Source: a virus
Reading direction: 5' to 3' (one strand)
DNA length: 35,403 nucleotides
Virus record (IMG/VR): IMGVR_UViG_3300030099_000873
Coordinates: 1 to 35,403 of that record
Both the position numbers and the translations under genes were made by a program. Under the pieces are notes generated by a model that saw only the letters and a list, made by a program, of their open reading frames with translations, had not been told where the DNA came from and made no database searches. Shown piece after piece: positions 6,140 through 21,316 of the stretch (the first letter of the stretch is position 1; every line of letters begins with the position of its first letter).

Positions 6140-7420
6140 TTAATATCCTGATACAGTATCCAAAGGTTCCCACTCGTGTACTTCTATCTGCTGTGCAAAG
6201 TCTGCTACCGAAACTTGGTCTATATATGCCAAAGAGTCTAACAAGTCATCGTGAGAAAGTGGACTTGGGAAGTCTAGCATCTGACTTATAAAGTGGTGGT
6301 TCCACTCTGCCTTTCTAAACTTGATCTTTCCGTGTTCAAACCTGCCCTGCAAAGACCAAACTATTCTGTCTTGCTTTCTTTTGCCGCCATGAGTAACATC
6401 TGTAAGATTAATCCAAGAACCTCTTGTTCTCATTTCGTCTTCGATGTAGGGCATGATAGCATTCTTAAGCGCACCTGCTTCAATTCCTACTGTCGTTGCA
6501 TTTACATCTTCAGCTATCGTAATAATTTTTTCTGCTGTCTCTTTGATGTTCCAACGACCGTGGTGTATGTCCTTTACTAACCACTCGTCACCAACTACTT
6601 TAACTACTGATATAGCCGTTTCGTCTAGTTTGGAAGACTTTAGTCCTCTTGACTTATCGCTTTTTTCAAAGCCTGCCGGATCGACTGAAACCACATACGA
6701 ACCTGTTTTAGTGGCCGTATCTTCATCAAACTCTTCATCATCTTCATATTTGACCCATTCTTCCTTAAATACGCCACCTGAAAAACTTTCAAAGGTAGCT
6801 TCAAATTCCTGACGAAATGCCTGAGTAGACATTGATTTCTTGGCGGCTTCGATTTCCTCGGGGTCCAGAAAAGGATTATCTGTTGAAACAAATTGATAGG
6901 ACTCCCAATCTTTTTCGTTTTCTGGTAGTTGTGCTTCTAGCCACAACTTGTGAAAGTGGTTCTTACCTGCGGGTGTACCTATAAACAATGCACCACCCCT
7001 AACGTCTGCCAGTGTGGGCCTGAGGATCATCTCCCACACTTCTGGTTTCATTGAGGCATATTCGTCCATTACGACATATGCTAGACCTACGCCTCGTAGT
7101 GTATCTGGTCTGTCTGATCCCTTTAGATAAATCTTACGGTCATTAACCAGTGTAATTGTAGCAGTGTTCTCGTGTGTGCTTTTGATTACATTCTGGCCTA
7201 CGTCCTTGAGGATTGACCAGAGAATATCTTTAGCTTGTTGAAATGTAGGGGCTACATAGAAGACATCCTTGTCCTCACTTTGGAGTGCTTTAATAATCAG
7301 CACCCATGCAGCTAAATAACTTTTACCAAATCTCCTGCCACAACTTGCTACTTTAAATCGTTTGTCAGACTTGAAGATTTGCATCTGAGCATCGTGAAGA
7401 GTAACCTTTAGATCAGGCAT
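6140..7420 (-). CDS. terL: Terminase large subunit
   Basis: This 426-aa packaging motor has both expected domains. In the ATPase domain, Walker A is GRRFGKS (residues 28-34), Walker B ends VVMDE (D119, E120) and the coupling motif is GTPAG (148-152). In the RNase H-like nuclease domain the candidate acidic metal ligands are D247 (VSVDPAG), E314 (GIEAGAL) and the HDDLLDSLAY cluster (D391, D392, D395). Length is normal for compact marine phage terminases. It translocates genomic DNA into the procapsid through the portal and cuts the concatemer. The start overlaps the small subunit gene by 8 bp, consistent with coupled synthesis of the two subunits. Confidence 0.95.
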   Translation of the reverse strand: MPDLKVTLHDAQMQIFKSDKRFKVASCGRRFGKSYLAAWVLIIKALQSEDKDVFYVAPTFQQAKDILWSILKDVGQNVIKSTHENTATITLVNDRKIYLKGSDRPDTLRGVGLAYVVMDEYASMKPEVWEMILRPTLADVRGGALFIGTPAGKNHFHKLWLEAQLPENEKDWESYQFVSTDNPFLDPEEIEAAKKSMSTQAFRQEFEATFESFSGGVFKEEWVKYEDDEEFDEDTATKTGSYVVSVDPAGFEKSDKSRGLKSSKLDETAISVVKVVGDEWLVKDIHHGRWNIKETAEKIITIAEDVNATTVGIEAGALKNAIMPYIEDEMRTRGSWINLTDVTHGGKRKQDRIVWSLQGRFEHGKIKFRKAEWNHHFISQMLDFPSPLSHDDLLDSLAYIDQVSVADFAQQIEVHEWEPLDTVSGY

Positions 7421-7784
7421 CTTTTAGTTCTTCAAACTCTGCTTCAAATACTTCCTGCTCTTTTGCTTCCTTTGCTTCTACAGCTTTTACACCTTCGATT
7501 ATAATATTAACACCTAAGTCTTGATGTTCGTGTGTAATCTCTACTGCTTTTGAGGTGGGGATAATTCTGTCCATACACATCTTCAGACAATGCCTGTCGC
7601 CTTCCAATGCCATCTCAATTACCTTGTTTACAATCTCCGGTCCCTTGGTGGACATAAGTTCTCTTGAGAGCTTTGTGTATTTGTTTAGAGAACCTTTGGG
7701 TCTTCCTTCTGGATTGAGAGGCTTCATACCCTTGTAGAAGTTTGGATTACCTCGTCTCTTCTTTACTGGCGTATCGTCTGACAT
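7413..7784 (-). CDS. terS: Probable terminase small subunit (DUF5681-like)
   Basis: This 123-aa protein opens with a basic segment, RRGNPNFYKG and NPEGRPKGSLN (residues about 10-36), which resembles the N-terminal motif of DUF5681-type proteins often found directly upstream of large terminases. The middle is helical (MALEGDRHCLKMCMDRII) and the C-terminus is an acidic coiled coil (AVEAKEAKEQEVFEAEFEEL). Small terminases recognise the packaging site and regulate the large subunit. The position immediately before terL, with an 8-bp overlap, strongly supports this role, although no canonical helix-turn-helix can be proved by eye. Confidence 0.7.
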   Translation of the reverse strand: MSDDTPVKKRRGNPNFYKGMKPLNPEGRPKGSLNKYTKLSRELMSTKGPEIVNKVIEMALEGDRHCLKMCMDRIIPTSKAVEITHEHQDLGVNIIIEGVKAVEAKEAKEQEVFEAEFEELKDA

Positions 7785-8131: not shown

Positions 8132-8250
8132 ATCGCTCTCCTTTAAAAGACCAAACCCAAACCTATCGGTTTGACTAACTTAAGTATCTTAAGAATTAAC
8201 TTAGTTATTAATTTTAATAACATACTTAATGAACAACCTAATATAACTAT

Positions 8251-8279
8251 ATTATAACATATTTAGCTTCTTTTGTCAA
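8251..8279 (-). promoter_or_regulatory. Consensus sigma-70 promoter for the late (leftward) block
   Basis: On the minus strand, TTGACA (8279-8274) and TATAAT (8256-8251) are separated by exactly 17 bp, a perfect match to the bacterial housekeeping promoter. Transcription would start near 8244 and give a leader of about 110 nt before the first late gene at 8131. No phage RNA polymerase gene is present, so host polymerase is the expected reader. Confidence 0.85.
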
Positions 8280-8508
8280 TAGGGTTCCTTAGGATTTCTT
8301 AGGAATAACCCGCCTCACCCCAAAAGTCAACCCCTAAGTTGTACTTTAGTTAAGTTAATTATCTAATTCATGGACCTCCAAATTGCTTCCCATGTGGTCA
8401 TGAGGGTATATATAACATGGGGAGGCTGCGTGGGTCCCCCCGGCCTACCTTAGTCTGCCACAGAACCCCCATGAACTTCCTGAGGATCACAGCGCCACCT
8501 TGGAACTG

Positions 8509-8560
8509 CCTCAGGATGCCTCAGGATGCCTCAGGATGCCTCAGGATGCCTCAGAACTAC
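8509..8560. repeat. Tandem 10-bp direct repeats (iteron-like array 1)
   Basis: The unit TCAGGATGCC occurs four times without change (8511-8550), preceded by GCC and followed by a degraded fifth copy (TCAGAACTAC, 8551-8560). Each junction makes CCTCAGGAT. The 10-bp period is close to one turn of the helix, so bound proteins would lie on one face. Related CCTNAGGAT sequences occur at 8287, 8479 and 12054-12105. Confidence 0.85.
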
Positions 8561-8602
8561 CGGAGAAAACGTGAGAAGGAAGAGTGCATGATTATGGATA
8601 TA

Positions 8603-8614
8603 TGGGACGTCCCA
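8603..8614. promoter_or_regulatory. Palindromic element 1, TGGGACGTCCCA
   Basis: A perfect 12-bp palindrome between the two repeat arrays, followed by AAAAAT. It shares the TGGGA-NN-TCCCA core with five other copies on the early side. This copy and the one at 8742 are not directly followed by a start codon. Confidence 0.7.
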
Positions 8615-8619
8615 AAAAT

Positions 8620-8672
8620 CCTCAGGACCACTCAGGACCACCTCAGAACCACATCAGAACCACAACGGAACC
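8620..8672. repeat. Direct repeats of 10-11 bp (iteron-like array 2)
   Basis: Units CTCAGGACCA (8621, 8631), CTCAGAACCA (8642), ATCAGAACCA (8653, first base off) and ACGGAACCA (8664) follow one another with spacings of 10, 11, 11 and 11 bp. The array becomes more degenerate to the right and ends a few bases before a TATAAT at 8681. It shares the CTCAGGA core with array 1. Confidence 0.75.
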
Positions 8673-8680
8673 AGACACCT

Positions 8681-8741: not shown

Positions 8742-8753
8742 TGGGATATCCCA
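8742..8753. promoter_or_regulatory. Palindromic element 2, TGGGATATCCCA
   Basis: A perfect 12-bp palindrome flanked by A-runs, 77 bp before the first early start codon. A weaker look-alike (GGGGATATTCAG) lies just upstream at 8723-8734. Like element 1 it is followed by AAAAAT. Confidence 0.7.
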
Positions 8754-8830
8754 AAAATTTTTGTAGACATACCTGATAGGCTTCCCTATGTATTGTCTAT
8801 CGACAACGACAAACCAACAGGAGATATACA

Positions 8831-9457
8831 ATGTCTAAGATCGATACAGTTGAAGTCACCGCCGAAACCATCAACAAGGAACTGGTCAAGGCCGTGAAGA
8901 CCGATGCGAAGGTTGCACGGAAGCTTGTTCTCGAAGTTCATCCGTTCGCCGCTGAAATACTCAAGAAGGAGACGGATGGCGCATGGCCTGCGAAGTCTCT
9001 CACGGTCAAGATGATAGACGCCTCTCAGGTTCTACAGGACATGTTCGTCGGTCTATCTCAGGCGGACCGCTCGAACCACGTCCGCGACATTAAGTTTGTT
9101 TCGGAGAACTTCGACGCGGTCGTGACCGAAGGAGAGACGAACGGATGGCGGAAGATTGATGCCATGCGGAAGGCTATTCAGAAGGCTCAGAAAGCGGCTC
9201 AGAAGGATAGCGAAGAGGCTTCGGAGGATACTCAGGAGGCTGCTCAGGAGGCTTCTGAGGCTGCTCAGGAGGCTGCTCAGGAATTCCCGACGATCAGCAT
9301 CAATGACATTATGTCGGCGATTATGAAGCACATTCCCGACGCAACCAATGCTCAGTTGCTGGCGGTAGCGGAGGAACTTGACCCGCTGTCGAGGGAAACG
9401 AAGGAACTCACGGGAGAGGAACTGCTTAAATTTCTCGGAATGAACGCCTTCAAGTGA
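8831..9457 (+). CDS. First early gene, Ala/Gln/Glu repeat protein of unknown function
   Basis: This 208-aa protein is the first rightward gene, preceded by AGGAG about 8 nt before ATG. Residues 1-110 look globular (KLVLEVHPFAAEILKK, QVLQDMFVGLSQADRSNHVRDIKFVSENFDAVV). Residues about 112-150 are a low-complexity helical stretch of Ala-Gln-Glu repeats (AAQEASEAAQEAAQE), and a last domain (ISINDIMSAIMKHIPDATNAQLLAVAEEL) may be a small helical interaction module. I recognise no family. Codons end mostly in C or G, unlike most late genes. First position after the control region suggests an early regulator, host-takeover protein or repeat-binding protein, but nothing in the sequence proves this. 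A hairpin follows the stop. Confidence 0.75.
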   Translation: MSKIDTVEVTAETINKELVKAVKTDAKVARKLVLEVHPFAAEILKKETDGAWPAKSLTVKMIDASQVLQDMFVGLSQADRSNHVRDIKFVSENFDAVVTEGETNGWRKIDAMRKAIQKAQKAAQKDSEEASEDTQEAAQEASEAAQEAAQEFPTISINDIMSAIMKHIPDATNAQLLAVAEELDPLSRETKELTGEELLKFLGMNAFK

Positions 9458-9465
9458 CCTCTACG

Positions 9466-9493
9466 GAACCCCTTGACACACGTCAGGGGGTTC
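9466..9493 (+). terminator. Strong hairpin after the first early gene
   Basis: Arms 9466-9477 and 9482-9493 pair over 12 bp (one G-U) with a 4-nt loop, starting 9 nt after the stop codon. The sequence after it is only moderately T-rich, so termination may be partial. A TTGACA (9473-9478) lies inside the hairpin with TATAGA 15 bp later, a weak alternative promoter reading. Confidence 0.55.
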
Positions 9494-9531
9494 TATAGAG
9501 TTCATTTGTCAACATGAAAGGAAACTGAACT

Positions 9532-10212
9532 ATGTCGAATTATAAGCTAATCGGTGTGGGTAATAACGCCAAGACTGTAAAGGGTGACGGAAGCGAATAT
9601 CTCACGGCTATCCTGTACCTGACGCCGGACGACTACTTGTGTCCCTTGTCCCGTCTAGCGGGATGCAGGGAGGGTTGTCTCAATACGGCGGGACGGGGTG
9701 CCATGAATACCGTTCAAGCGGCGCGGCATCGTAAAACGCAAATGCTATTGAAACTGCCGGAACAATTCGACAAGCTTCTGCGCGACGATCTCGACAAGTT
9801 TCAGCGATACTGTCAACGCAGGGGAATACAACCCGTGGTCCGTCTTAATGGTACATCAGATTACAATTGGAAAGAAGTGATAGTAGACTATCCCGAAATA
9901 CAATTCTATGACTACACAAAGGTATACAATCGTGTATCTAAGAATTGGCCGGACAACTATCACTTGACGTTGTCATATTCTGAAGCTAATATTCAGTATC
10001 GCGACAAGGTAGTCGAGTATGCGAACAAGTACAGCGCCAACATGGCGGTAGTATTTCGGGACAAGGAGAGTATTCCTGAAACATTTCTAGGTCGTCAGGT
10101 TATAGATGGCGACAGGGATGATCTGAGATTCCTTGACCCCGAGAATGTAGTTGTGGCATTATATGCCAAGGGTAAAGCGAAGAAGGATACGACAGGATTC
10201 GTTATCGATTAA
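9532..10212 (+). CDS. GP88-domain protein
   Basis: This 226-aa protein matches the phage Gene product 88 family: a Cys cluster C37, C45, C49 followed by LNTAGRGAMNTVQAAR (residues 50-65), then KT near 68 and VRLNGTSDYNW (103-113). The family is common in phages and plasmids of actinobacteria and proteobacteria and has no established biochemical role that I know. The conserved cysteines suggest a metal or Fe-S site, and the RLNGTSD segment looks like a conserved active or binding loop. A clear AAAGGA ribosome-binding site precedes ATG 9532. The stop codon touches the next palindromic element. Confidence 0.8.
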   Translation: MSNYKLIGVGNNAKTVKGDGSEYLTAILYLTPDDYLCPLSRLAGCREGCLNTAGRGAMNTVQAARHRKTQMLLKLPEQFDKLLRDDLDKFQRYCQRRGIQPVVRLNGTSDYNWKEVIVDYPEIQFYDYTKVYNRVSKNWPDNYHLTLSYSEANIQYRDKVVEYANKYSANMAVVFRDKESIPETFLGRQVIDGDRDDLRFLDPENVVVALYAKGKAKKDTTGFVID

Positions 10213-10216
10213 AATC

Positions 10217-10228
10217 TGGGATGTCCCA
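10217..10228. promoter_or_regulatory. Palindromic element 3, TGGGATGTCCCA
   Basis: It lies directly after the GP88 stop (TAA 10210-10212) and 20 nt before ATG 10249, with GAAAGG between them. It is preceded by AAATC and followed by AAAAT, shared with elements 4-6. Confidence 0.75.
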
Positions 10229-10248
10229 GAAAATTGAAAGGTGAAGAC

Positions 10249-10398
10249 ATGACTAAGAAAGAAATGGCTGAGACTTTGACATTCAAGCTTGAAGCAATGA
10301 TGCTGATGATCGTTGCTGGTAGGAATAAAAAAGCAGAGGAATTCCTTGCTGATATCAGAACTATCCTTAGGGATGCCATTGAGGAGGGGGACGAATGA
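10249..10398 (+). CDS. Small helical hypothetical protein
   Basis: This 49-aa ORF begins at ATG 10249 after GAAAGGTG and ends TGA 10396-10398. The sequence (MTKKEMAETLTFKLEAMMLM, then RNKKAEEFLADIRTILRDAI) would form two amphipathic helices. It overlaps the next gene by 4 bp (ATGA). It is the first gene behind palindromic element 3 and so would head a sub-operon of small genes. No family recognised. Confidence 0.65.
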   Translation: MTKKEMAETLTFKLEAMMLMIVAGRNKKAEEFLADIRTILRDAIEEGDE

Positions 10399-10610
10399 CT
10401 GTTAGAGTGTGGACCAAGGAACAGACACAGGAAACCATCAAGGCACTTCGAAGGGCGGGGTACACCATCCCGCCCAAAGGGGACACCGGGATGTACAAGA
10501 CAGAAGAGGAATACGCACCGGGTAAAAAAGTTTTTGTTGCAATGGTAGGAACAAGAGGGTATCTTGTCAGGTACTGGGATGAATTATTTCAAGAGGAGAA
10601 CGACAAATGA
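10395..10610 (+). CDS. Hypothetical protein
   Basis: This 71-aa protein (WTKEQTQETIKALRRAGYTI near the N-terminus, then KVFVAMVGTRGYLVRYWDELF) looks like a small alpha-beta fold with an N-terminal helix and a C-terminal pair of strands. ATGA overlaps on both sides (10395 and 10607) tie it into the run of small early genes. A ribosome-binding site (GAGGAGG) precedes it inside the previous gene. No family recognised. Confidence 0.65.
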   Translation: MTVRVWTKEQTQETIKALRRAGYTIPPKGDTGMYKTEEEYAPGKKVFVAMVGTRGYLVRYWDELFQEENDK

Positions 10611-10801
10611 ACCACAAACATGGTAGTCCATACGATAGAGGTTCAGCGGATAGGTTCTACAATCGCAACTATGAACCACACTACTGGCCTAATGGAACCG
10701 GCAGGGGGTACAAAGTACCTCGTGAGATGATGACAGCGGACCAGATTGCAGAGTATTTGCAGGGGTGGCGTGAAGAAAACGAGAGAAAGGACTGGGGATA
10801 A
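10607..10801 (+). CDS. Small conserved phage protein (HGSPYDRGSAD family)
   Basis: This 64-aa protein opens MNHKHGSPYDRGSADRFYNR and continues with PHYWPNGTGRG and a C-terminal helix ending in ERKDWG. The HGSPYDRGSAD-x-(Y)YxR-PHxW signature is widespread in small ORFs of diverse tailed phages and some bacterial proteins; no function is known to me. It is coupled to both neighbours by overlaps of 4 bp and 1 bp. Confidence 0.75.
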   Translation: MNHKHGSPYDRGSADRFYNRNYEPHYWPNGTGRGYKVPREMMTADQIAEYLQGWREENERKDWG

Positions 10802-10893
10802 TGTTTAAAAAGATCATGAAAACAATCAACGACGACTTGTCAGTATTTCTGATTATACTGGTAACCGTGATAATTATTGAGGTATTCTTATGA
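10801..10893 (+). CDS. Tiny single-pass membrane peptide
   Basis: This 30-aa ORF has a short basic N-terminus (MFKKIMKTINDDL) and a hydrophobic stretch of about 16 residues (SVFLIILVTVIIIEVFL) that would span the membrane. Its start overlaps the previous stop (TAATG) and its stop overlaps the next start (ATGA), which supports reality despite its size. A role at the host membrane early in infection is possible but unproven. Confidence 0.6.
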   Translation: MFKKIMKTINDDLSVFLIILVTVIIIEVFL

Positions 10894-11345
10894 AACAGAA
10901 ACATTTAGTTGCATATATGGAAACTGCCTACGCATTCGCTGAGTGTAGCACGGCACGGAGGTTGAAGGTGGGGTGTATCATTGTGAAGGACGAAAGGATT
11001 ATATCCATCGGATACAATGGTACACCCTCAGGGTGGGACAACAATTGCGAATCTGAGATATATAGCACGAGTGTTGGCGATAATCCGAGACTAGTGACGA
11101 AGCCTCAGGTTCTACATGCGGAGTCCAACGCGATAGCCAAGCTTGCTAGGTGTACCGAGAGTGGAGAAGGTGCCACGTTGATATGTACGCATGCGCCCTG
11201 CATGGAATGTGCCAAGTTAATCTTGCAATCTGGGATCATCCGTGTTATATACTCAGAAGACTATAGAAGTACGGACGGTCTGGAGTTCCTGACTCAGGGC
11301 GGTGTCAATGTTGTACAAGCTAAGATGGAGGTTATAGAGGTATGA
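10890..11345 (+). CDS. dcd: dCMP deaminase
   Basis: This 151-aa zinc enzyme would convert dCMP to dUMP, the substrate for the ThyX encoded at 18439. The cytidine deaminase fold is shown by HAE (H76, E78 as zinc ligand and proton shuttle) and PC-x2-C (C104, C107 as ligands), with GYNGTPSGWDNNC (41-53) as the usual substrate loop of T4-type dCMP deaminases. Length is close to that family. It starts in an ATGA overlap and its stop overlaps the next start. A segment within codons for QSGII resembles the palindromic element, but this motif is normal for the enzyme. The gene symbol is tentative; cd is used in T4. Confidence 0.9.
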   Translation: MKQKHLVAYMETAYAFAECSTARRLKVGCIIVKDERIISIGYNGTPSGWDNNCESEIYSTSVGDNPRLVTKPQVLHAESNAIAKLARCTESGEGATLICTHAPCMECAKLILQSGIIRVIYSEDYRSTDGLEFLTQGGVNVVQAKMEVIEV

Positions 11346-11875
11346 ATATATTCTACCTACACGAGAACCCAAAACGCTGCGCCGAGATGCACTGTGACAA
11401 GCATGTAGTCAAGATGATACTGGAGACTGCCCAGCTACTCAGCACAGCGCACCATGAGATCGACGGGGAGCCTAGCATTGAGTGCTACAAGGCAACGCAC
11501 AAGAACCACCCAAGTGCGGTGTGGGCTAGGGAAAACCGTAGCAATTACATATGGTTGTGGAACCTTCTCAATAGTTTATGCAAGGAGTATACGAAGAGAT
11601 ACGGAAAGGTTCACAAGACCGAGAGGATCGGTATGGTGAGGGACTTGGGCAACTGTCCATATGAATTACGCAACGGTCCCTTCACTGACCCACCCCAGTG
11701 CATGGATGACTACTGCAAGGTGCCTGAGAATACCGTCATGGCGTACCGTAACTACTACATCAACGAGAAATCTTACATGGCCCGGTGGCAGTTTACACCA
11801 GAACCAATCTGGTATACCATCGGCATGGCCGCACAAATGAAGGATAAAGTAATGGAGCAAGTAAATGCGATGTAA
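11342..11875 (+). CDS. Conserved phage protein with CDKHVVKM motif, function unknown
   Basis: This 177-aa protein begins MNIFYLHENPKRCAEMHCDKHVVKMILETAQLLSTAHH, here spanning residues 1-38, followed by CYKATHKNHPSAVWARENRSNY and a C-terminal AYRNYYINEKSYMARW. This pattern recurs in many marine T4-like and T7-like phages. Conserved His, Cys, Asp and Lys residues near the N-terminus suggest an enzyme or metal site. I cannot name an activity with confidence; DNA repair or nucleotide-related roles have been suggested by annotation but not seen here. It is coupled to dCMP deaminase by a 4-bp overlap. Confidence 0.7.
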   Translation: MNIFYLHENPKRCAEMHCDKHVVKMILETAQLLSTAHHEIDGEPSIECYKATHKNHPSAVWARENRSNYIWLWNLLNSLCKEYTKRYGKVHKTERIGMVRDLGNCPYELRNGPFTDPPQCMDDYCKVPENTVMAYRNYYINEKSYMARWQFTPEPIWYTIGMAAQMKDKVMEQVNAM

Positions 11876-12044
11876 AATATGTGATGTTAAACTAAATAAT
11901 TCAGAATTACTTAGAAAGGATGCCCAAGGTAATCACATGGACACCTGCAACAAGTGCATCGGTGCCATCTATGAAAACACGGATGAATTCGATTTCATTC
12001 TGGATGTAAACTCAGTGCTTGACAATGAGGAGGAAGACGTGTAA
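11865..12044 (+). CDS. Small zinc-ribbon-like protein
   Basis: This 59-aa ORF starts at ATG 11865, 11 bp before the previous stop. It has a four-Cys arrangement, C3-x2-C6 (CKIC) and C28-x2-C31 (CNKC), typical of a small zinc finger or ribbon, and a strongly acidic C-terminus (LDNEEEDV). Such proteins often bind nucleic acids or transcription machinery. Too short for many gene finders; start choice is supported by AATGGAG upstream. Function unknown. Confidence 0.65.
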   Translation: MRCKICDVKLNNSELLRKDAQGNHMDTCNKCIGAIYENTDEFDFILDVNSVLDNEEEDV

Positions 12045-12053
12045 GATACTAAG

Positions 12054-12105
12054 GTATCCTAAGGGGATAGATTATTAATCATTAATGTTATTCTCCTTAG
12101 GATAC
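12054..12105. repeat. Inverted repeat CCTTAGGATAC flanking an AT-rich loop
   Basis: Arms 12054-12064 and 12095-12105 are perfect reverse complements over 11 bp, with partial extension outward, around a 30-bp AT-rich spacer. It lies between the zinc-ribbon gene and palindromic element 4. The arm matches the CCTNAGGAT theme of the control region at 8287-8550. No T-run follows, so a simple terminator is unlikely. Confidence 0.7.
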
Positions 12106-12115
12106 TTAAGAAATC

Positions 12116-12127
12116 TGGGATGTCCCA
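12116..12127. promoter_or_regulatory. Palindromic element 4, TGGGATGTCCCA
   Basis: It lies 20 nt before ATG 12148 with AGAAAGGA between. The flanks AAATC and TAATTT match elements 3, 5 and 6. Confidence 0.75.
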
Positions 12128-12147
12128 TAATTTAGAAAGGATTGGTT

Positions 12148-12318
12148 ATGTCTATCAAAGATGGTCGTCGTAAGGCACCGAAGAAGAAGAACCCTGTCGC
12201 TCGTGACATGCACAAGTTCAACAAGCGAAAGGTCTTTCGTAGTCAGAAGAGCAAGTTGGCAGCAGAGGCTGTCGATGAGGAACTTAAGGAGTACATGAGA
12301 GGTGACTACGATGGATAA
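12148..12318 (+). CDS. Small basic hypothetical protein
   Basis: This 56-aa protein is strongly basic in its first 40 residues (KDGRRKAPKKKNPVARDMHK, then NKRKVFRSQKSKL) and acidic at the end (AEAVDEELKEYMRGDYDG). It follows palindromic element 4 and a clear GAAAGG site. The charge pattern would suit binding to nucleic acid or to the host transcription machinery. No family recognised. Its stop overlaps the next gene's start region by 8 bp. Confidence 0.65.
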   Translation: MSIKDGRRKAPKKKNPVARDMHKFNKRKVFRSQKSKLAAEAVDEELKEYMRGDYDG

Positions 12319-12484
12319 AGTGTGGATTGTCTTTTCATATGATGGGTATGACAGTTCCAAGGTTCAGAAAATCTTTACGTCTGAGGAGATGGCATTGGAA
12401 TATCGGGACCACATTACCAAGTTGGGAGATGAGAGGTGGAATGGTTTCTATGTCAAAAAGTTTTCGGTTGAGAAAGGTAGTTGA
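12311..12484 (+). CDS. Small alpha-beta protein (DUF7336-like)
   Basis: This 57-aa protein (MDKVWIVFSYDGYDSSKVQ, then FTSEEMALEYRDHI and GFYVKKFSVEKGS) has the strand-helix-strand pattern of small phage proteins with a VWIV-x-YDGYDS start, which I tentatively link to DUF7336. ATG 12311 is preferred over the in-frame GTG 12302 because GAGAGG (12297-12302) is then 8 nt away. Function unknown. Confidence 0.65.
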   Translation: MDKVWIVFSYDGYDSSKVQKIFTSEEMALEYRDHITKLGDERWNGFYVKKFSVEKGS

Positions 12485-12512
12485 CAATGGAATTTTTTTC
12501 CTGTAGTATAAT
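12481..12512 (+). promoter_or_regulatory. Candidate promoter for the SSB gene
   Basis: TTGACA (12481-12486) and TATAAT (12507-12512) are both perfect hexamers but are 20 bp apart, longer than the usual 16-18. It starts at the stop of the gene before and lies 48 bp before ATG 12560, in a gap not otherwise explained. It may need help from an activator or be weak. Confidence 0.4.
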
Positions 12513-12559
12513 GGGTGTAGTATGAACGCAATGTATGACACAATAGAGGAGTGTTGAAT

Positions 12560-12931
12560 ATGATTACAGAAGGAACAGTTGCTTTTTCGAACCTCGAAGA
12601 AACGGAACGCTACAACGGACAGGACACTGGAAAGTATTCCATCGTCCTCACGCTGGAGCCTGACGAAGCAGCCAAGCTGGCACAGGAGGGAGTCAAACTC
12701 CGCGAGTACAAGAACCAGCCGCAGCGTAAGTTCGTCACCAAGTTCTCCGGGTTCCCGGTGCTTGATGCGGACGGAGATCAAATCTCCAAGTACATTCCGT
12801 ATGGCTCCAAGGTTCGAGTGATGTGGGAACCGGGCAAGCCCCACCCGCAACACGGCGTTGCTCCGTACTTCAAGAAGATCAAAGTTCTTGAGATGGCGGA
12901 ACAAGTCGGAGCGGACGACGAGGACTTCTGA
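12560..12931 (+). CDS. Single-stranded DNA-binding protein (gp2.5-like)
   Basis: This 123-aa protein has a beta-rich OB-fold-like body (EGTVAFSNLEETERYNG, KYSIVLTLEPDEAAKL, YIPYGSKVRVMWEPGK, VAPYFKKIKVLEM) and a short acidic C-terminus ending GADDEDF. The acidic tail with terminal Phe is the hallmark of T7 gp2.5, where it contacts polymerase and helicase. It would coat single-stranded DNA at the fork and in recombination. Shorter than T7 gp2.5 (232 aa), as in other marine phages. ATG 12560 is preferred to GTG 12551 because AGAGGAG (12546-12552) is then properly spaced. It overlaps the helicase start by one base (TGATG). Confidence 0.8.
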   Translation: MITEGTVAFSNLEETERYNGQDTGKYSIVLTLEPDEAAKLAQEGVKLREYKNQPQRKFVTKFSGFPVLDADGDQISKYIPYGSKVRVMWEPGKPHPQHGVAPYFKKIKVLEMAEQVGADDEDF

Positions 12932-19391: not shown

Positions 19392-19594
19392 TGGAAGAGT
19401 ATATAGAAGAAGCTTACTTCAAGGCTTTGGTAGACGAAGGACTAGACCCTGATGTTCTGTGCTTTATAGAAGAGATGGCAGCAATAAACCATAGAACAGT
19501 TACTTATTTTATTATGGAAGCTCTTGAAGATTTCAAATCACACTTGGATCAAGGCGAAGAATTTTCAGAGATTACTTTTACTTCGCACCATTAA
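19391..19594 (+). CDS. Small acidic hypothetical protein
   Basis: This 67-aa protein (YIEEAYFKALVDEGLDPDVL, then INHRTVTYFIMEALEDFKSHL) is acidic and mostly helical; the segment with NHRTVTYFIMEALE loosely recalls a ribbon-helix-helix DNA-binding unit, but this is weak. ATG 19391 follows GGAGAGAAG and overlaps the previous stop (TAATG). It lies 21 bp before the RNR gene. Function unknown. Confidence 0.6.
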   Translation: MEEYIEEAYFKALVDEGLDPDVLCFIEEMAAINHRTVTYFIMEALEDFKSHLDQGEEFSEITFTSHH

Positions 19595-19615
19595 AACTAA
19601 AGGAGAAATCCAGAT

Positions 19616-21316
19616 ATGTACGGAAGAAACTCAGTAGGACCGCTGGTCAAACCATGTGACGATCTTCACGCTATGAAGTATCGTCTTCAAAATGAAAGCT
19701 TTGAAGAAGCAATTAACAGACAAGCAGGAGTAATGTCGGATGATGAAGAACATCGTAGAGCGTATAAAGAGATCACTATGGACATGCGGTTCCTCGCTGC
19801 TGGCAGAGTCCAATCTGCTATGGGAAGTCCGAGGGATGTTACGGCGCTTAACTGTTTCGTCAGTGGAACAATTGAAGACTCTATGGACTCTATCATGCAG
19901 CGAGCTTCTGAAGCGGCTGAGACAATGCGGCGCGGAGGTGGGATTGGCTACGATTTCTCTCTTATTCGCCCTCGCGGTTCTCGCATTGTATCTCTTGATA
20001 GTTCTGCCAGTGGTCCTGTATCATTTATGCACATCTTTGATGCGGTATGTAGGACGATAGTATCAGCGGGTCACCGTCGTGGTGCCATGATGGGTATGCT
20101 TCGTGTCGATCATCCAGACATTGAAGAGTTTATCCGCGCCAAGAAGAACGACAAAGACCTGACCAACTTCAATGTCAGCGTGGCTGTTACCGATGAGTTC
20201 ATGAGGGCAGTGGAGAAAGGTGGTAGCTTTGATCTCCAGTACAAAGGTGAGAAGCACCGTACCATCGATGCTCGTATGCTGTGGGACGAGATCATGCGTA
20301 ACAACTGGGACTGGGCAGAGCCGGGTGTGATCTTCATTGATCGTGTCAACGAGGACAATCCCCTGAACTACTGTGAAACTATCGCAGCAACCAACCCCTG
20401 CGGAGAGCAACCTCTGCCTCCCTACGGTGCCTGTCTTCTTGGTTCATTCAACCTTGTTAAGTATGTTGAGGATGGGAAGTTTAACTTCAACAAAATGAAG
20501 TCTGATATTCCCCATGTGGTACGTGCTATGGATAATGTCATAGACCGTACCAAATATCCCCTTAAGGAACAGCATAAGGACCATCAGGATAAGCGTCGTA
20601 TGGGTTTGGGTATCACTGCCCTAGCAAACACCTTCACGCTTCTAGGGATGTCCTACGGCTCTCCTGAGTCCATTCAGTTAACGAAGAAGATCATGAAGAC
20701 ACTGACCTACACAGCCTATGAGGCAAGCTCTGATCTTGCAGTAGAGAAGGGATCGTTTCCTCTGTACGAGGAAGAGGGTTACATGGCTAGTGGTTTCATC
20801 TCCCGTCTGCCTAAGGACTTACAGGAAAAGATACGGAAGCAGGGTATCCGCAATAGCCACCTGACTTCCATAGCACCCACAGGTACGATCAGCTTCTGTG
20901 CCGACAACGTATCCAGTGGTATTGAACCTGTGTTTGCCTATGAGTACGACCGCACAGTTCAGCTACCCGAAGGTCCGATTGTGATGAAGATGAAGGACTA
21001 TGTGTGGAATATGTTTGAGAAGAAAGGAGAACAGACGAGCGACTTGACGACTGACGATCACCTTAACATTCAGATCGCAGTTCAACCGTTCATTGACAGT
21101 GCTTGTTCAAAGACCATTAATGTCGGTGATGCTGTTACGTTTGATGAGTTTAAGGATGTATACCTGAAGGGATGGAAGGGTAAACTAAAGGGTGTTACCA
21201 CCTTCCGACTAGCCGGTAAACGCTATGGTATCCTTAACGTCAGCGAGGAGAAGGATACTGATGAGGGTGCAGCCTGCTTCATTGACCCAGAGACAGGCCA
21301 GAAAGAATGCGGCTAA
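19616..21316 (+). CDS. nrdJ: Class II (B12-dependent) ribonucleotide reductase
   Basis: This 566-aa enzyme reduces ribonucleotides to deoxyribonucleotides with adenosylcobalamin and no small subunit. Diagnostic residues are C80 (redox), NPCGEQ with thiyl-radical C262 and E264, C273 eleven residues later as second redox Cys, PTGTIS (421-426) and a C-terminal pair C554 and C565 that would re-reduce the active site. Spacing C262-C273 equals that of class II enzymes. It depends on B12 from the host. GGAG precedes ATG. It is the last gene of the early block; its stop overlaps the stop of the convergent late block by 4 bp. Confidence 0.93.
   Translation: MYGRNSVGPLVKPCDDLHAMKYRLQNESFEEAINRQAGVMSDDEEHRRAYKEITMDMRFLAAGRVQSAMGSPRDVTALNCFVSGTIEDSMDSIMQRASEAAETMRRGGGIGYDFSLIRPRGSRIVSLDSSASGPVSFMHIFDAVCRTIVSAGHRRGAMMGMLRVDHPDIEEFIRAKKNDKDLTNFNVSVAVTDEFMRAVEKGGSFDLQYKGEKHRTIDARMLWDEIMRNNWDWAEPGVIFIDRVNEDNPLNYCETIAATNPCGEQPLPPYGACLLGSFNLVKYVEDGKFNFNKMKSDIPHVVRAMDNVIDRTKYPLKEQHKDHQDKRRMGLGITALANTFTLLGMSYGSPESIQLTKKIMKTLTYTAYEASSDLAVEKGSFPLYEEEGYMASGFISRLPKDLQEKIRKQGIRNSHLTSIAPTGTISFCADNVSSGIEPVFAYEYDRTVQLPEGPIVMKMKDYVWNMFEKKGEQTSDLTTDDHLNIQIAVQPFIDSACSKTINVGDAVTFDEFKDVYLKGWKGKLKGVTTFRLAGKRYGILNVSEEKDTDEGAACFIDPETGQKECG

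What the first reader, a model, noticed from the sequence alone, without database searches (positions are those of the whole stretch)
8509..8672. Two iteron-like arrays in the divergent control region
Array 1 has four identical 10-bp units plus a degraded one; array 2 has about five related 10-11 bp units. Both share CTCAGGA and are phased with the helix, next to an AT-rich tract (8160-8280) and between the late and early promoters. This is the layout expected of an origin with iterons or of a cooperative repressor/activator site. T7-like phages normally start replication at promoter-linked origins using their own RNA polymerase; this phage has none, so it needs another way.
Basis: partly seen in the sequence, partly recalled or inferred. 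Interest (0 to 1): 0.72.

Follow-up and report, generated by a model that had tools for sequence, protein, structure and literature searches.

The report
Phage genome-end and DNA-packaging junction
The repeat arrays are real, but they most likely belong to the junction where this phage's chained genome copies are cut into unit lengths and packaged (a T7-type terminal repeat) rather than to a replication origin, and they may show how a T7-like phage without its own RNA polymerase marks its genome ends.

Summary
The arrays are real and far above chance. About 100 uncultured relatives carry the same module between the terminase/late and early operons: a 33-bp element A, a C-run at fixed distance, a variable stretch with 10-11-bp phased repeats, a conserved element B, then a second phased array. 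Array sequence and copy number change, but the phase (best lag 10 or 11 in 34 of 42 lineages) and a degenerate core motif (CTCAGGACCAC, also inverted inside A) persist.

Known T7-type phages (T7, T3, gh-1, phiKMV, SP6, Syn5, Pf-WMP3, PP) have a C-run starting 25-29 nt inside the left end of their terminal repeat, and most have phased short repeats inside it. The same rule puts this phage's left end at 8411, C-run at nt 26, and predicts a terminal repeat of about 8411-8605. Array 1 lies inside it, array 2 just outside. Pf-WMP3, with the same late/early layout, has its 234-bp terminal repeat in the same gap. Relatives' contig ends cluster at both predicted borders.

Origin evidence is weak: no DnaA-box or IHF enrichment, no initiator found, GC skew tracks gene strand. 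No virion-end data exist, so the terminal repeat is inferred.

The parts
8251..8279 (-). late promoter, sigma70 consensus 12/12 with extended -10; a similar TTGAC-17-TATAAT is visible in relatives
8378..8410 (+). element A (CCAAATTGCTTCCCATGTGGTCATGAGGGTATA), conserved across distant relatives; holds an inverted copy of the array motif (GTGGTCATGAG); predicted flank of the terminal-repeat left border
8411..8605 (.). predicted direct terminal repeat (about 195 bp; right border uncertain, 8601-8608)
   Evidence: inference
8436..8441 (+). C-run (GGGTCCCCCC), nt 26 of the predicted terminal repeat
8507..8556 (+). array 1: 10-bp units TGCCTCAGGA x4 plus TGCCTCAGAA, inside the predicted terminal repeat; the x4 expansion is private to this genome
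8579..8597 (+). element B (GAAGAGTGCATGATTATGG), conserved; just left of the predicted right border
8603..8614 (+). palindrome TGGGACGTCCCA at the predicted right border
8620..8673 (+). array 2: five 10/11-bp units (CCTCAGGACCA and similar) just outside the predicted terminal repeat; position comparable to T7's CCTAAAG array
8742..8753 (+). second palindrome TGGGATATCCCA upstream of the early promoter
8764..8792 (+). early promoter-like TAGACA-17-TATGTA
   Evidence: read from sequence
7413..7784 (-). probable small terminase (DUF5681 hit); detected in 41 of 42 lineages with the module
6140..7420 (-). terminase large subunit, weak T7-type RNase H-like similarity in its C-terminal part

Best explanation
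The finding is part of a T7-type concatemer junction. The predicted direct terminal repeat runs from about 8411 (10 nt from the start of TGA in element A, with a C-run at nt 26) to just after element B at about 8605. Array 1 lies inside it, and array 2 just outside, in the position of T7's short-repeat array. During late infection the terminase would recognise A, B and the phased arrays on concatemeric DNA, cut at the two borders, duplicate the repeat and package one unit. The phased arrays are most likely cooperative binding sites for one DNA-binding protein, probably the small terminase at 7413-7784. Shown: the arrays, the module's conservation, phase, shared motif, C-run spacing, and location next to the terminase operon. 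Inferred: that the virion ends lie here, the exact right border, and the identity of the binding protein.
For: C-run starts 25-29 nt inside the terminal repeat in T7, T3, gh-1, phiKMV, SP6, Syn5, Pf-WMP3 and PP (20 in Pf-WMP4; chance about 4% each), and 26-31 nt from the predicted left end in 40 of 41 relatives. The border contexts TGAGTGACTA| (T7), TGAATGGGTA| (T3), TGAATGGTCA| (gh-1), TGAAGGGGTA| (Syn5) resemble TGAGGGTATA| here. Pf-WMP3 has the same order (early genes +; terminase, portal, scaffold, capsid on -) and its 234-bp terminal repeat lies in the gap between the two blocks. Known terminal-repeat interiors show 10-12-bp periodicity in T7, T3, gh-1, SP6, Pf-WMP3, Pf-WMP4 and PP. Predicted repeat lengths of 124-315 bp overlap known 107-414 bp. 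Contigs of relatives end at -2, +6, +12 from the predicted left border and 4, 9, 11 nt after B: 6 of 14 ends in 23 of 350 bp, P about 1.5e-4, windows chosen after the fact. The array motif is enriched right of B on one strand only (49 v 4.7 shuffled; other strand 1 v 0.75), starting at +22/23 from B in most other lineages and +42/43 in this clade. The probable small terminase is found in 41 of 42 lineages at 66-98% identity.
Against: No virion-end or read-depth data. No contig with two copies of the repeat was found. The right-border motif of several T7-like phages (ATCTGTT) is absent, so that border rests on B and three contig ends. T7's array right of its terminal repeat has a 13-bp period, not 10-11. 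Contig ends also cluster because repeats break assemblies (L030 ends inside a 22-bp tandem repeat). Circularly closed contigs fit headful packaging as well. The TerS fold prediction was too poor to use (pLDDT 56).
Confidence: 0.72

Rival explanations
1. Replication origin with iterons: a phage or host initiator binds the phased arrays and melts adjacent AT-rich DNA.
For: Phased direct repeats beside AT-rich stretches, start of the early region, cumulative GC-skew minimum at about 8.5-9 kb.
Against: DnaA boxes 4 v 3.4 expected over 42 lineages, IHF 4 v 1.8; no initiator family hit; skew flips with gene strand at 8.5 and 21.3 kb; the candidate binder 8831-9457 was detected in only 15 of 42 lineages; C-run and border contexts unexplained.
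Confidence: 0.12
2. cos or headful pac site: same terminase function, but without duplication of a terminal repeat.
For: Next to the terminase genes, conserved core with repeats on one side, circularly closed contigs.
Against: C-run position and repeat phase match direct-terminal-repeat phages specifically; two border-like elements A and B rather than one; contigs read through the region, which unligated cos virion DNA would not give.
Confidence: 0.1
3. Transcription control: phased operator arrays for a phage activator or repressor of the early and late promoters.
For: Array 2 ends about 8 bp before a TATAAT; palindromic TGGGANNTCCCA sites nearby; sigma54-like sites in 24 of 42 lineages.
Against: Good sigma70 early and late promoters lie about 90 and 230 bp from the nearest array; arrays have a fixed phase to B, not to the promoters; A and the C-run unexplained.
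Confidence: 0.05
4. Neutral slippage repeats without function.
For: Unit copy number changes between near-identical genomes; the 10-bp x4 unit is private to this genome.
Against: 10 or 11-bp phase is best in 34 of 42 lineages with differing unit sequences; motif enrichment and strand bias.
Confidence: 0.01

Closest known systems
T7/T3 concatemer junction (terminal repeat flanked by CCTAAAG short-repeat arrays)
   Same: C-run at nt 26; TGA about 10 nt before the left border; short repeats inside and right of the terminal repeat, period 11-12 inside; placed between the terminase gene and the early promoters
   Different: T7 has its own RNAP and ATCTGTT at the right border, where the RNAP-lysozyme complex pauses to start packaging (PMC3276506, PMC11617373); its array right of the repeat has period 13; terminase genes are at the end, not the start, of the late block
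Pf-WMP3, Pf-WMP4 and cyanophage PP terminal repeats (Saffermanviridae)
   Same: Pf-WMP3: same late/early layout and 234-bp repeat in the gap between the blocks; C-run at nt 27 (20 in Pf-WMP4); no ATCTGTT border; capsid homologue of this phage (about 37% identity)
   Different: No sequence match to elements A or B; repeats weaker (lag 10-11, z about 2-3.4)
Plasmid R1 parC (type II partition site)
   Same: Direct-repeat arrays split in two, a protein that wraps DNA (PMC5016525)
   Different: No ParM or ParR family hit among the proteins scanned; arrays flank B, not a par promoter
Iteron origins (lambda O, plasmid Rep)
   Same: Helically phased direct repeats near AT-rich DNA (general knowledge)
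   Different: Units of about 17-22 bp with a cognate initiator (general knowledge); none found here

Membership tests
T7-type direct terminal repeat / concatemer junction | Virion DNA bears the same sequence directly repeated at both ends | not testable with these tools
   no virion reads; no contig with two copies found
T7-type direct terminal repeat / concatemer junction | C-run about 20-29 nt inside the left terminus (feature found here by comparing nine phages) | tested here: met
   nt 26 in the window; 26-31 in 40 of 41 lineages; the left terminus itself is predicted
T7-type direct terminal repeat / concatemer junction | Located between the terminase/late block and the early promoters | tested here: met
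T7-type direct terminal repeat / concatemer junction | Short phased repeats in and beside the terminal repeat | tested here: met
   period 10-11 here, 13 right of the repeat in T7
T7-type direct terminal repeat / concatemer junction | ATCTGTT pause signal at the right border (T7, T3, SP6, Syn5; variant in gh-1) | tested here: not met
   also absent in Pf-WMP3, Pf-WMP4 and phiKMV, so it does not define the whole group
Iteron replication origin | Cognate initiator protein or DnaA boxes | tested here: not met
Iteron replication origin | Replication starts at the site | not testable with these tools
   needs nascent-strand or depth data
Type II partition site (parC) | Linked ParR and ParM genes | tested here: not met
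   no such hits in the proteins scanned; not every ORF was scanned

The most novel reading that the evidence does not exclude
An RNA-polymerase-independent way to mark the packaging end. In T7 the phage RNAP pauses at ATCTGTT at the right border and helps terminase start packaging. In this RNAP-less group that signal is missing, and a conserved element B flanked by phased arrays (inverted to its left and direct to its right in some relatives, for example L108) takes its place as a terminase loading site, in about half of the lineages together with sigma54-like sites inside the repeat.
Probability: 0.3. Interest if true: 0.75.

Novelty: new member of a known kind. Interest (0 to 1): 0.52.

Why it matters
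It gives a sequence rule (TGA, 10 nt, border, C-run at nt 26) that predicts genome ends of a widespread uncultured phage group from assembled contigs, where end repeats are collapsed. It moves the finding from replication to packaging, and it makes testable how T7-like phages without their own RNA polymerase find the concatemer junction.

Tried and rejected
Origin: no DnaA or IHF enrichment, no initiator hits, and GC skew confounded by gene strand. Product of 8831-9457 as the partner: detected in only 15 of 42 lineages, though some loci do not reach far into the early region. Coding: the 119-aa ORF across the arrays is not kept in most close relatives. Structured RNA: no Rfam match. cos by homology: SSU5, whose terminase shares about 49% identity over half its length, has no arrays or C-run at its ends by eye. 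Named relatives by DNA: none. Host or prophage copies of A: the genome scan used a 16-mer that was too short, and none of its hits carried the A plus C-run pair. Terminal repeats in full-length contigs: only assembly overlaps of 94 and 127 bp, plus a 122-bp shared stretch at the ends of L030's contig. Contigs starting at the predicted left end: none. TerS structure: pLDDT 56, not used for a fold search. Iteron and terminal-repeat paper searches gave no description of this module.

Full report
OBSERVATION. The window is a 35,403-bp IMG/VR virus record with late genes on the minus strand (8072 down to 700, and 35320 down to 21313) and early genes on the plus strand (8831 to 21316). Array 1 (8507-8556) is TGCCTCAGGA x4 plus TGCCTCAGAA; array 2 (8620-8673) has five units at 10, 11, 11, 11 bp. 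The longest lag-10 identity run is 38 bases; the best over lags 5-30 in shuffled windows is 14.

RELATIVES. A terminase search gave 80 loci and a search with the first early protein 14 more. In close relatives the array unit is mostly 11 bp and copy number changes by whole units; the 10-bp x4 run is private to the window. Flanking elements are far more conserved: A (CCAAATTGCTTCYSATGTGGNCMTGAGNGT) followed at fixed spacing by GGGTCCCCCC, then B (AAAGARTGYMTGAGTATGG). The A plus C-run pair is in 116 of the loci held, several of them from the same contig; after removing similar ones 42 lineages remain.

WHAT THE ARRAYS KEEP. Best autocorrelation lag is 10 or 11 bp in 34 of 42 lineages, although unit sequences differ. 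The 11-mer CTCAGGACCAC, present inverted in A, is enriched right of B on the plus strand (49 v 4.7 shuffled) and not on the minus strand (1 v 0.75); left of B both strands are enriched. Right-hand units start at +22/23 from B in most other lineages and at +42/43 in the window's clade. Some relatives carry inverted units left of B and direct units right of it (L108). This points to one protein with a degenerate target bound in helical phase.

IDENTIFICATION. The decisive comparison was with phages of known ends. Pf-WMP3 has a capsid homologue, early plus-strand genes and a minus-strand late block that includes terminase, portal, scaffold and capsid in the same order, and its 234-bp direct terminal repeat lies between the two blocks. 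Across T7, T3, gh-1, phiKMV, SP6, Syn5, Pf-WMP3 and PP a C-run begins 25-29 nt inside the left terminus (20 in Pf-WMP4); about 4% of random positions would do so. In T7, T3, gh-1 and Syn5 the border follows 10 nt from the start of a TGA. Applying that to the window puts the border after 8410 and the C-run at nt 26; 40 of 41 relatives give 26-31. Interiors of known terminal repeats show 10-12-bp periodicity in seven of nine phages.

BORDERS. Fourteen contigs of relatives end within about 350 bp of A: three at -2, +6 and +12 from the predicted left border, three 4, 9 and 11 nt after B. A uniform model gives P about 1.5e-4, but the windows were chosen afterwards and repeats also break assemblies (L030's contig ends inside a 22-bp tandem repeat). 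Some full-length contigs close on themselves by 94- and 127-bp overlaps at other places, so reads cross the junction; this disfavours unligated cos ends but fits terminal repeats or headful packaging.

MECHANISM. Inferred: terminase recognises A, B and the arrays on concatemers, cuts at about 8411 and about 8605 and duplicates the repeat. The probable small terminase (7413-7784) is the best candidate binder: adjacent, detected in 41 of 42 lineages, 66-98% identical. Its role is not shown; the fold prediction was unusable. How small terminases bind DNA is itself debated (PMC9611059, PMC11331095).

WHY NOT AN ORIGIN. DnaA boxes and IHF sites are at chance, no initiator was recognised, GC skew switches with gene strand at 8.5 and 21.3 kb, and 8831-9457 lacks detected homologues in most lineages. 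An origin nearby is not excluded.

WHAT MAY BE NEW. T7, T3, SP6 and Syn5 carry ATCTGTT at the right border (variant in gh-1), the class II pause/termination sequence of phage RNAP (PMC11617373); [quoted passage not shown] The signal is missing from this module, as in Pf-WMP3 and Pf-WMP4 and also phiKMV. B and the arrays sit in its place. That RNAP-independent marking is a testable reading, not a result.

Noticed in passing
relatives L032, L035, L036, L038, L043, L061, L064, L155 and others, between the C-run and B: Near-consensus sigma54 (-24/-12) sites TTGGCAYGnnnnTTGCAT: 58 in the control regions of 24 of 42 lineages against 0.08 expected, and only 2 elsewhere in 347 kb; mostly inside the predicted terminal repeat, often as facing pairs. 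The window has none. Unexplained.
   Followed up: partly
window 8603, 8742, 10217, 12116, 16586: Five exact TGGGANNTCCCA palindromes, all intergenic; the last three lie just upstream of a start codon in a shared context (AATCTGGGAYGTCCCA then AT-rich then ribosome-binding site). Could be an operator or an RNA hairpin.
   Followed up: partly
window 8251-8279 (-): The late operon has a full 12/12 sigma70 promoter with extended -10, odd for late genes unless it is repressed or occluded early.
   Followed up: no
window 9178-9290: In-frame GCTCAGGAGGCT-type codon repeats in the first early gene, sharing CTCAGGA with the arrays; probably coincidence of Ala-Gln-Glu repeats.
   Followed up: no
L030/L336 (contig IMGVR_UViG_3300020810_000012): A 22-bp tandem repeat (two 11-bp half units) in the same place, about six copies; the contig's two ends both fall in it with different copy numbers.
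   Followed up: yes
window 12551-12931 and 17857-18255: T7-like replication and recombination genes: a probable single-strand-binding protein (by eye only) and an endonuclease I homologue, beside primase-helicase and PolA, with no RNAP found among the proteins scanned.
   Followed up: no
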